A program made the translations under genes and the position numbers. Source: Leptospiraceae bacterium (GTDB lineage: Bacteria; Spirochaetota; Leptospiria; Leptospirales; Leptonemataceae). Taken from it: a DNA stretch of 64,000 nt. The DNA lies in the NCBI GenBank assembly GCA_026418015.1, contig JAOACE010000009.1:219087-283086 (forward strand), given 5' to 3'. Below the pieces are notes generated by a model. That model saw only the letters and a list, made by a program, of their open reading frames with translations. It ran no database searches and was not told where the DNA came from. Positions 6,096 to 8,145 of the stretch are shown in pieces; the first letter of the stretch is position 1; every line of letters begins with the position of its first letter.

Positions 6096-6145
6096 TCACT
6101 CCCACCAAATTAGCGGATTAATGAATTTATAGTCAAAATCTTTTT
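6096..6145 (-). repeat. Mod 3'-tail repeat copy R1 (encodes DFDYKFINPLIWWE*)
   Basis: Reverse-strand GATTTTGACTATAAATTCATTAATCCGCTAATTTGGTGGGAGTGA matches the end of mod (8097-8145) and 7315-7365. Confidence 0.9.
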
Positions 6146-6153
6146 CTACCCTT

Positions 6154-7311
6154 TCATTCCGTTTTTCTCGGTATTTTAATGACAAATTCGTTTTCTGTAT
6201 TTTCAAACCCAACATCTTCATTTAAGTGTTCTTTGACTAATTTAATTATTCTTCTTACACCACTTCCCAAATCGGTAACCATTTTCATTTTCAAAAGCAT
6301 ATTGTAGATGGTTGGATTTCTTAATACATGAGAGCCACCTACTTTTATGCTTTCAACTGTTACTGTATTAGGTAGTCTACCAGGGCTATGAATTTCCACT
6401 CTATTGGTAAAAATTAAAACTCGTATTGGAGCGTTGATTGTATAATCTCTATGAGCAATAGCATTTACAATGGCTTCTCTTAAAGCAGTGAGCGGAATTT
6501 CATATTCTGATTCTGGTTGAAAATCTTTTATTCTATGTTTATTGCGAAGGGATAATTTGAAAAAAATTTCAACGCTCTGAATTATATCAAAAATTTTTCC
6601 TGTTAGATTTTTAGTTTCTAAGGTTGTTTCTCCAATATCGTTCCCTTGAATGATTGCACAAATTATTCGGGACTGACCAATAAATTTTTGTGGTTCATAA
6701 CCAAAAAATAATATTCCCGTAAGAGTGGGGATTAAACTCTCTTTTTCTATCAAATGAAAATTATTAAGATAATTTATAATTTCTTCCTCGTCATTTGTTT
6801 CAATTTCCAGGTAATTTTTGAGAAAAAATTTAAAAGCTGAAATATCCAAATCAATAAATTTAGCGTTATTTACAGGCAATTCATCATAAAATAAACTTCG
6901 TGTTGATTGGAATATTCTCAATAATTCTTCTCTTGTTGCTTGCGGACAACGATTTGATGCCCTTACGTAGTATTGTCCCGCCTTTGTTTTATATGGTCTT
7001 TGAGTTCCTTTCTCAACATTGACAATTACAACATTTTTTCCTTCAATACTTATTGATTCTTGTAGAATCATCACGGGTGGTTCGCAACGATAAAGTGCAA
7101 TATCGTCCATCCTTAACATTACCTTGTCAATATCTGAAACACCCATGATTTTTGCTGAATCATCCACTCCAATCAATATCTTACCACCATCGGTATTGGC
7201 AAAGCATACAATAGTTTTTGAAAAGTCTTCGTTGTTTTCTTCCTCCAGCTTAAATTCAAGGTGATATCCTTCGCCTTTATTTAATATTTCTAAAAATTCC
7301 TTGCTATTCAT
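6154..7311 (-). CDS. AlbA_2 (Schlafen-like) DNA-binding domain protein with RecG-like/HATPase_c_4 C-terminal region
   Basis: EGYHLEFKLEEENNEDFSKTIVCFANTDGGKILIGVDD; IPLTALREAIVNAIAHRDYTI; LGSGVRRII. Confidence 0.85.
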   Translation of the reverse strand: MNSKEFLEILNKGEGYHLEFKLEEENNEDFSKTIVCFANTDGGKILIGVDDSAKIMGVSDIDKVMLRMDDIALYRCEPPVMILQESISIEGKNVVIVNVEKGTQRPYKTKAGQYYVRASNRCPQATREELLRIFQSTRSLFYDELPVNNAKFIDLDISAFKFFLKNYLEIETNDEEEIINYLNNFHLIEKESLIPTLTGILFFGYEPQKFIGQSRIICAIIQGNDIGETTLETKNLTGKIFDIIQSVEIFFKLSLRNKHRIKDFQPESEYEIPLTALREAIVNAIAHRDYTINAPIRVLIFTNRVEIHSPGRLPNTVTVESIKVGGSHVLRNPTIYNMLLKMKMVTDLGSGVRRIIKLVKEHLNEDVGFENTENEFVIKIPRKTE

Positions 7312-7314
7312 AGA

Positions 7315-7365
7315 TCATTCCCACCAAATTAGCGGCTTAATGAATTTATAATCTAAATATTTTTT
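7315..7365 (-). repeat. Mod 3'-tail repeat copy R2 (encodes YLDYKFIKPLIWWE*)
   Basis: TTAGATTATAAATTCATTAAGCCGCTAATTTGGTGGGAATGA on reverse strand, directly upstream of the AlbA_2 start codon. Confidence 0.9.
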
Positions 7366-7370
7366 ATTTA

Positions 7371-7773
7371 TTAACTTATTCCCATTTCTTTGAATTTATT
7401 TATTACAAATTGTTTGACTTTTTCGCAAATTTCAATCGCCTCTTTTGCTTCTTCTTAAAGAAGGAAAATAAAATTCTTCGGGATATCTTATTTCAACAGC
7501 ATATCTTGTAAGTTTGTTAGCCATCATATCATAAAGGGAATTAAATTCTTTATTATCTTCAATACATAGTTCGATTAATAATGCAATATCATGAGTTTTT
7601 CCAAAAGGTTTATCAATAAATGAAAGATAAGCCTTTAAATATTTTTCTACACATTGTTGTGCATGAAAACATATAGCATCTGTTGCAGGATTTTCGGTTA
7701 AAATCTCATCTTTTGCAATTTTTAAATCATTTTCTGCTTTCAATATCCATTTTTCAATTTTCTCTTTTTTCAT
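7371..7773 (-). pseudogene. HEPN domain protein, apparently frameshifted near 7455 (listed ORF 7432-7773)
   Basis: CFHAQQCVEKYLKAYLSF...KTHDIALLIELC...YAVEIRYPEEFYFPSL then frame change; alternative frame continues EEAKEAIEICEKVKQFVINKFKEMGIS* to 7371. Confidence 0.75.
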
Positions 7774-8093
7774 ATTGAGATACCTTCCTTAAGAGCATAA
7801 TAAGTAATTCTACCAACATCATCTTTGGATTCTTGTATTTCTTTTTCTGATTTTAAGATAATATCATTAGGTATTTTCAATTTAGCTAATTTTATTTTAA
7901 TCTTATCAATTATATCCCATTTTTTTTGAAAGCTCAAATCTTTATCAATAACCACAAAAAAGTCCCAATCACTATCTTCGCGGTAAGTTCCTTTTGCTCT
8001 ACTTCCAAAAAGATAAAATCCCTTTACTTCTACGTTATACTTTTTAAGCTCATCTATGGTGATTTGTTTTACGATTTCTGAAATGTTTTCCAT
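7770..8093 (-). CDS. MNT-type minimal nucleotidyltransferase
   Basis: YLFGSRAKGTYREDSDWDFFVVID (GSxAxG..DSDxD). Confidence 0.88.
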   Translation of the reverse strand: MENISEIVKQITIDELKKYNVEVKGFYLFGSRAKGTYREDSDWDFFVVIDKDLSFQKKWDIIDKIKIKLAKLKIPNDIILKSEKEIQESKDDVGRITYYALKEGISI

Positions 8094-8096
8094 ATC

Positions 8097-8145
8097 TCAC
8101 TCCCACCAAATTAGCGGCTTTATTAACCTATAATCCAAATCTTTT
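8097..8145 (-). repeat. Mod 3'-tail repeat copy R3 (parental end of mod)
   Basis: Encodes LDYRLIKPLIWWE*; compare 6096-6145 and 7315-7365. Confidence 0.9.

What the first reader, a model, noticed from the sequence alone, without database searches (positions are those of the whole stretch)
6096..8145. Three copies of the mod 3' tail mark cassette junctions between mod and res
The last ~45 bp of mod (encoding LDYRLIKPLIWWE*, 8097-8145) recur at 7315-7365 (YLDYKFIKPLIWWE*) and 6096-6145 (DFDYKFINPLIWWE*). Each lies immediately before the next start codon: MNT, AlbA_2 and ImmA. The array reads mod-tail / MNT-HEPN / tail / AlbA_2 / tail / ImmA-PIN-res. This implies repeated site-specific or homologous insertion at the mod stop codon, each time regenerating the tail, i.e. 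a hotspot that loads accessory defence cassettes into a type III R-M operon while keeping translation coupled.
Basis: partly seen in the sequence, partly recalled or inferred. Interest (0 to 1): 0.88.

Follow-up and report, generated by a model that had tools for sequence, protein, structure and literature searches.

The report
Mod-tail scars mark swapped defence cassettes
In a bacterial DNA-defence operon, short leftovers of the modification gene sit before each added defence gene, and relatives in other bacteria and archaea show that this gap is a place where defence genes are repeatedly added and swapped, leaving such leftovers behind.

Summary
The last ~50-75 nt of mod recur at 7316-7389 and 6098-6143 (83-87% DNA identity), each just before the next gene's start, and nowhere else in the genome. 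The mod-res gap is a true insertion hotspot: among 61 related loci from many phyla (bacteria and archaea), 23 have mod abutting res and 38 carry 1-5 cargo genes of many families, all in mod's direction, nearly all starting within 20 nt of mod's stop. Comparable tail copies exist at other cassette junctions (L051 twice, L152, L178; decayed or probable in L064/L080 and L072), and one leads a cargo gene stranded outside any R-M operon (L173). The proposed mechanism, insertion at mod's stop regenerating the tail, is not supported: tail lengths vary, no testable copy best matches its own mod, other junctions carry res heads or other gene stubs, and one related locus (L048) is collinear with the stretch behind a scar, as its unscarred form. 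Best reading: operons recombine and collapse, joining one mod plus cargo to another operon's cargo plus res; the stub of the lost mod survives because it is the next gene's ribosome-binding site. Embedded defence genes are known; these scars I found undescribed.

The parts
8097..11126 (-). mod, type III DNA methyltransferase (1009 aa) ending ..KDLDYRLIKPLIWWE*; carries an inserted DUF559 domain (~9758-10235)
   Evidence: N6_N4_Mtase E 6.6e-32, DUF559 E 7.8e-30; similar to solved Mod/EcoP15I Mod; many relatives lack the insert
8097..8168 (-). mod 3' tail (last 72 nt), whose TGG TGG GAG TGA also reads as the ribosome-binding region of MNT
7770..8093 (-). cassette 1: MNT nucleotidyltransferase
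   Evidence: NTP_transf_2/Polbeta; MntA NCBIfam match below its cut-off
7374..7773 (-). cassette 1: HEPN gene, reading frame broken near 7455 (ORF called 7432-7773)
   Evidence: HEPN E 1.5e-20; C-terminal part continues in another frame
7316..7389 (-). tail copy t2 (scar) before AlbA_2; firm 7316-7369, probable to 7389
   Evidence: 39.2 bits, E 3.4e-10; alignment
6154..7311 (-). cassette 2: AlbA_2/HATPase_c_4 protein; 71% identical to the AlbA_2 of L051
6098..6143 (-). tail copy t1 (scar) before ImmA; same junction as L051 scar s1
   Evidence: 36.2 bits, E 2.9e-9; collinearity with L051
4976..6094 (-). cassette 3: ImmA/IrrE-type (M78) protein
   Evidence: PADLOC RmrA-like
4473..4979 (-). cassette 3: DUF4411 protein
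   Evidence: E 3e-46
1511..4459 (-). res, type III restriction subunit (982 aa)
   Evidence: ResIII E 2.4e-14

Best explanation
The gap between mod and res of this widely transferred type III R-M operon is a loading and exchange site for defence and toxin-antitoxin-like cassettes. Two operons (an incoming and a resident one, or two in tandem) recombine and collapse: [mod1 - cargo1] becomes joined to [cargo2 - res2], and the res1 and mod2 bodies between them are lost. The joint falls at a variable point, so what stays behind is a 5' stub of the left-hand gene (res1 or a cargo head) and/or a 3' stub of the right-hand mod2. The mod2 stub is kept because its last codons (TGG TGG GAR stop) serve as the ribosome-binding region of the next cargo. 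In this window the order is read as: an old mod|ImmA-DUF4411|res operon was joined to mod|..AlbA_2 (scar t1), then to the present mod|MNT-HEPN block (scar t2). Shown: homology and places of the tails, cargo variability, the shared t1 junction with L051, collinearity of scar+ImmA+DUF4411+res with the mod tail+ImmA+DUF4411+res of L048. Inferred: fusion/collapse as the process, the order of events, and ribosome-binding as the reason for retention.
For: Hotspot: 61 loci with mod and res together, 23 without cargo (0-124 nt), 38 with cargo; 67/67 cargo ORFs of at least 80 aa run with mod; the first cargo starts within 20 nt of the mod stop in 37/38. Pairs with similar mod and res but different or no cargo: L062/L071 mod 87% res 83%, L053/L112 87%/82%. 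Scars elsewhere: L051 at 38.6 and 17.8 bits, L152 at 37.8 bits; short tail before the RhuM-Fic gene in L178 and a probable one in L072; 0 of 543 control start regions score 22 or more against 4 of 30 junctions. Unscarred state: L051 3887-7488 aligns with L048 -63 to 3468 relative to the mod stop. Other stubs of the expected polarity: res heads in L087 and L180, AlbA_2 head plus mod tail in L064/L080, ImmA head fused to a DUF4411 tail in L044. Candidate intermediate: L111 has mod followed 7 nt later by another mod. Leader travels with cargo: L173, a BRO gene 69-84% identical to full-length mod-res-embedded ones, outside any R-M, with ~100 nt of mod tail and a duplicated head of the neighbouring gene. 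Donor not own mod: L051 scar scores 97 to the L048 tail and 79.5 to its own. Window mod differs from its res by 8.5 GC points, the largest of 55 loci (mean 1.0, SD 2.5), and its palindromic repeats occur nowhere else in the genome.
Against: No direct before/after pair within one species was found. In L064 versus L080 the cassette differs while the last 172 nt of mod is 90% identical, so there the cassette was swapped without replacing the mod tail; block replacement is not the only event. Tails are short, so the choice of nearest donor is weak except for L051 and L173. Strong scars are few (about five junctions, two of them orthologous). Later recombination inside mod could also make scars differ from the resident tail. 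L111 is a 2.5 kb contig and may be misassembled.
Confidence: 0.65

Rival explanations
1. Tail-regenerating insertion: a cassette enters at the mod stop by site-specific or homologous insertion that duplicates ~50-100 nt of target, so each new cassette is flanked by a fresh copy of the resident mod tail.
For: Tails sit at cassette junctions in several genomes. L064/L080 show a cassette swap beside a conserved mod end. Window tails share the codons CCGCTAATTTGG with the resident mod.
Against: Left ends of the copies vary from ~17 to >100 nt. In all four simulated scars several other mods match better than the resident (5, 4, 19 and 7 of 69), which duplication plus decay produced in at most 1.5% of runs. 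res, AlbA_2 and ImmA stubs at sister junctions are not predicted. No integrase or transposase lies in the operon.
Confidence: 0.18
2. Homologous cassette exchange: once tails exist they act as 50-100 nt homology arms (with conserved mod 3' and res 5' ends), so cassettes flanked by tails are swapped or deleted by ordinary recombination.
For: L064/L080 keep mod 5' half, mod end, old cargo and res at ~88-100% in most windows but differ in cassette. Pairs with similar mod and res but different cargo.
Against: Arms are short and only ~80-87% alike; no excised or swapped pair was seen in one species. It does not explain the first scar or the res heads.
Confidence: 0.12
3. Convergence: unrelated genes evolved similar G-rich ribosome-binding regions.
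For: The best kept part of every tail is the GGTGGGA ribosome-binding-like stretch.
Against: Homology runs 46-105 nt and encodes LDYKFIKPLIWWE out of frame with the neighbours; 0 of 543 control start regions are alike; decoy maximum 9.7 bits against 36-39.
Confidence: 0.02

Closest known systems
Defence genes embedded in other defence operons ('guilt-by-embedding', Payne et al. 2024, bioRxiv 10.1101/2024.01.29.577857, read only as cited in PMC12988326 and PMC12629846)
   Same: Cargo between subunit genes of an immune system, same strand, swapped between relatives; several cargoes here match PADLOC embedded-candidate families (PDC-S13, HEC-06, PDC-S09).
PrrC or DarTG2 inside type I R-M operons (PMC12707154, PMC12255303)
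   Same: Accessory toxin or defence gene inside an R-M locus; DarTG2 lies between hsdS and hsdR.
   Different: Type I, not type III; no tail copies described in the passages read.
Type III R-M (EcoP15I type)
   Same: mod and res genes, Mod similar to EcoP15I Mod, ResIII helicase.
   Different: Up to five cargo genes and two mod stubs between mod and res; DUF559 domain inserted in Mod.
Integron gene cassettes
   Same: Ordered array of unrelated genes separated by a repeated sequence, plausibly newest nearest the anchor gene.
   Different: No integrase, no fixed boundary; the repeat is a fragment of the upstream coding gene.

Membership tests
Type III R-M system | Mod with N6-adenine methylase domain related to EcoP15I-type Mod | tested here: met
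   Pfam E 6.6e-32; 6k0w and EcoP15I Mod by sequence
Type III R-M system | Res with SF2 helicase in the same operon | tested here: met
   ResIII E 2.4e-14, same strand; no PDB relative by sequence
Type III R-M system | ATP-dependent cleavage and methylation activity | not testable with these tools
   needs bench assay
Embedded defence cargo (guilt-by-embedding) | Genes of other systems between subunit genes, same orientation, variable among relatives | tested here: met
   67/67 codirectional, 38/61 loci with cargo; swaps
Embedded defence cargo (guilt-by-embedding) | Anti-phage activity of the cargo | not testable with these tools
   homology to PADLOC families only
MNT-HEPN (MntA/HepT, type VII) toxin-antitoxin | MntA and HepT family assignment with intact genes | tested here: inconclusive
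   MntA 42.5 bits, below cut-off 60; HEPN Pfam yes but its frame is broken
Site-specific cassette system (integron-like) | Fixed-boundary recombination site | tested here: not met
   tail copies begin ~17 to >100 nt before the stop
Site-specific cassette system (integron-like) | Recombinase encoded with the array | tested here: not met
   no integrase or transposase among the operon's Pfam matches; a distant one is not excluded

The most novel reading that the evidence does not exclude
The mod 3' tail is a mobile 'leader': cassettes of the form [mod tail + defence gene] are shuffled across bacteria and archaea between type III R-M operons, and out of them, with the tail serving both as ribosome-binding site and as short homology arm, so the operon works as a recombinase-free cassette platform.
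Probability: 0.2. Interest if true: 0.8.

Novelty: new variant of a known kind. Interest (0 to 1): 0.6.

Why it matters
How accessory defences get into the middle of other immune operons, and how arrays grow without a recombinase, is open. Mod tails and res heads are readable records of individual joining events: they give polarity, order and sometimes the donor lineage. They also give a search handle: any gene led by a stray mod tail is a candidate former embedded defence gene, as the stranded BRO gene in L173 shows.

Tried and rejected
Convergence on a ribosome-binding motif: rejected by length and controls. Assembly repeat artefact: unlikely, since the copies differ from each other and t1 is shared with L051 from another assembly. 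Tails as translated leader peptides: t2 has no start codon in its frame, t1 only one overlapping the end of AlbA_2, so unlikely. Block replacement of mod plus cassette in L064/L080: first suggested by mod 77-83% against 92.6% for the rest, but windowed identity shows mod's 5' half and last 172 nt at ~88-95% and only the middle of mod plus the cassette exchanged, so I do not use that pair as proof. Palindromic repeats as insertion sites: they lie inside mod, not at the junctions. Viral contigs and plasmids gave few relatives. The tail-peptide search of about 1250 genomes found mod ends in about 1-12% of the genomes of each phylum group and, apparently outside mods, only the scars in G000 and L051's genome and the L173 copy; not every hit was opened, and decayed or frame-broken scars fall below its threshold. 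Searches failed on input and were redone where needed, except 79 (a literature search not repeated).

Full report
Observation. The mod gene (8097-11126, minus strand) ends ..KDLDYRLIKPLIWWE*. Two further copies of that end lie at 7316-7389 and 6098-6143, immediately before the ATG of the AlbA_2 and ImmA genes. They are 83% and 87% identical to the mod end, and nothing else in the 2.91 Mb genome is comparable. A DNA profile of mod ends from other loci scores them 39.2 and 36.2 bits; the best decoy is 9.7 bits. They are not in frame with the preceding genes.

Operon. Pfam gives N6_N4_Mtase plus a DUF559 insert in Mod, ResIII in Res, and MNT, HEPN, SLFN_AlbA_2/HATPase_c_4, Peptidase_M78 (ImmA/IrrE) and DUF4411 between them. 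Mod resembles solved type III Mods including EcoP15I. Mod relatives are spread over many phyla of bacteria and archaea.

Hotspot. A scan of one genome per species gave 80 Mod loci, and more came from whole-genome searches. Of 61 non-redundant loci holding mod and res together, 23 have mod abutting res (0-124 nt) and 38 carry cargo; all 67 cargo ORFs of at least 80 aa run with mod and res, and in 37 of 38 loci the first starts within 20 nt of the mod stop. Cargo includes BRO/PDC-S13, AAA with AlbA_2, ImmA with DUF4411, MNT with HEPN or HepT, GmrSD/HEC-06, RhuM-Fic, DUF3800, a ThsB-type TIR protein, DUF6119, a 23S-IVP protein, an AAA_13 protein and, behind the mod tail of L152, a DarT-macro protein. 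Loci with similar mod and res carry different or no cargo.

Scars elsewhere. L051 (Spirochaetota) reads mod | AAA-AlbA_2 | tail | ImmA-DUF4411 | tail | res. Its AlbA_2-tail-ImmA-DUF4411-res stretch is collinear with the window (72-73% DNA identity), so window t1 and L051 s1 are one inherited junction. L152 reads mod tail | DarT-macro | tail | next ORF, and the DarT ORF now ends inside the tail, out of frame. L178 keeps 17 nt of tail before RhuM-Fic and L072 probably ~22 nt before ImmA; four of 30 junctions score 22 or more against 0 of 543 control start regions. L064/L065/L080 carry an AlbA_2 head stub followed by a decayed tail before MNT-HepT.

Unscarred state. In L048 mod is followed directly by ImmA, DUF4411 and res; the L051 stretch beginning at its scar aligns from the last 63 nt of the L048 mod through ImmA, DUF4411 and into res. 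The L051 scar scores 97 against the L048 mod tail and 79.5 against its own mod tail.

Other stubs. L087 and L180 carry the first ~30 codons of res at a cassette junction, and L044 carries an ImmA head fused to a DUF4411 tail (the L180 stub was read by eye from the translation). In all of these, heads lie on the left of the joint and tails on the right, as expected for joints that removed what lay between. L111 shows mod followed 7 nt later by a second mod, with no terminal overlap that would betray a collapsed circle.

A tail outside an R-M operon. In L173 (an Altarchaeum genome, G439) a BRO gene 69-84% identical to full-length mod-res-embedded BRO genes is preceded by ~100 nt of mod 3' end (45 bits), with no mod there. 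To its left is a 102-nt duplicate of the head of the gene that follows it (score 121, shuffle maximum 45). The mod tail thus travelled as the leader of its cargo.

Mechanism. In the four scars long enough to test, 4 to 19 of 69 other mods match better; duplication followed by decay gave that in at most 1.5% of simulations. This test assumes that the resident mod was not replaced later. In the window itself mod differs from res by 8.5 GC points, the most extreme of 55 loci, and its palindromic repeats occur nowhere else in the genome, in keeping with a mod of recent foreign origin joined to an older cargo-res block. I therefore favour operon fusion or collapse at variable joints, with the mod stub kept as the ribosome-binding region of the next gene. 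Counter-evidence: in L064 versus L080 the cassette was exchanged while the mod end stayed, so cassette exchange without mod replacement also occurs. The retention reason and the order of events are inferred, not shown.

Known and new. Defence genes embedded in other defence operons are known (Payne et al. 2024 as cited in PMC12988326 and PMC12629846; DarTG2 in type I R-M, PMC12255303; PrrC, PMC12707154). In the papers I could search I found no description of mod-tail remnants at such junctions. The library lacks most subscription journals and preprints, so this is weak evidence of novelty. Verdict: a real and informative feature, a new variant of a known kind.

Noticed in passing
window 7374-7773 (-): The HEPN gene of the MNT-HEPN pair has a broken reading frame near 7455; its C-terminal part continues in another frame (real or assembly error).
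   Followed up: partly
window 9752-10246 and 8183-8546 (-): Mod carries a DUF559 domain flanked by inverted palindromic repeats (CCCCTCTTGTAGAGGGG type, read in frame as TPLTPLREGN-like); all five copies found in the genome lie inside mod, and relatives can carry several in tandem.
   Followed up: partly
L173 (G439:C68:18000-29000), ~4238-5160 (-): Stranded BRO gene with mod-tail leader outside any R-M operon, inserted next to a decarboxylase-like gene whose head is duplicated to the left.
   Followed up: yes
L152 (-), 227-1478: A DarT-macro fusion protein directly behind mod; its last residues are encoded by the mod-tail copy out of frame.
   Followed up: partly
L044, 14170-14340: In a genome of the same genus, a small in-frame remnant joins an ImmA head to a DUF4411 tail between GmrSD and res.
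   Followed up: partly
L087 (1243-1332 after the mod stop) and L180 (~3860-3947 after the mod stop): Stubs of the first ~30 codons of res lie between two cargo cassettes.
   Followed up: partly
L111, ~896-2530: A second mod gene starts 7 nt after the stop of a first one on a short contig.
   Followed up: partly
window 11299-12225 (-): A second, smaller DNA methylase gene (308 aa, N6_N4_Mtase) lies just upstream of mod.
   Followed up: no
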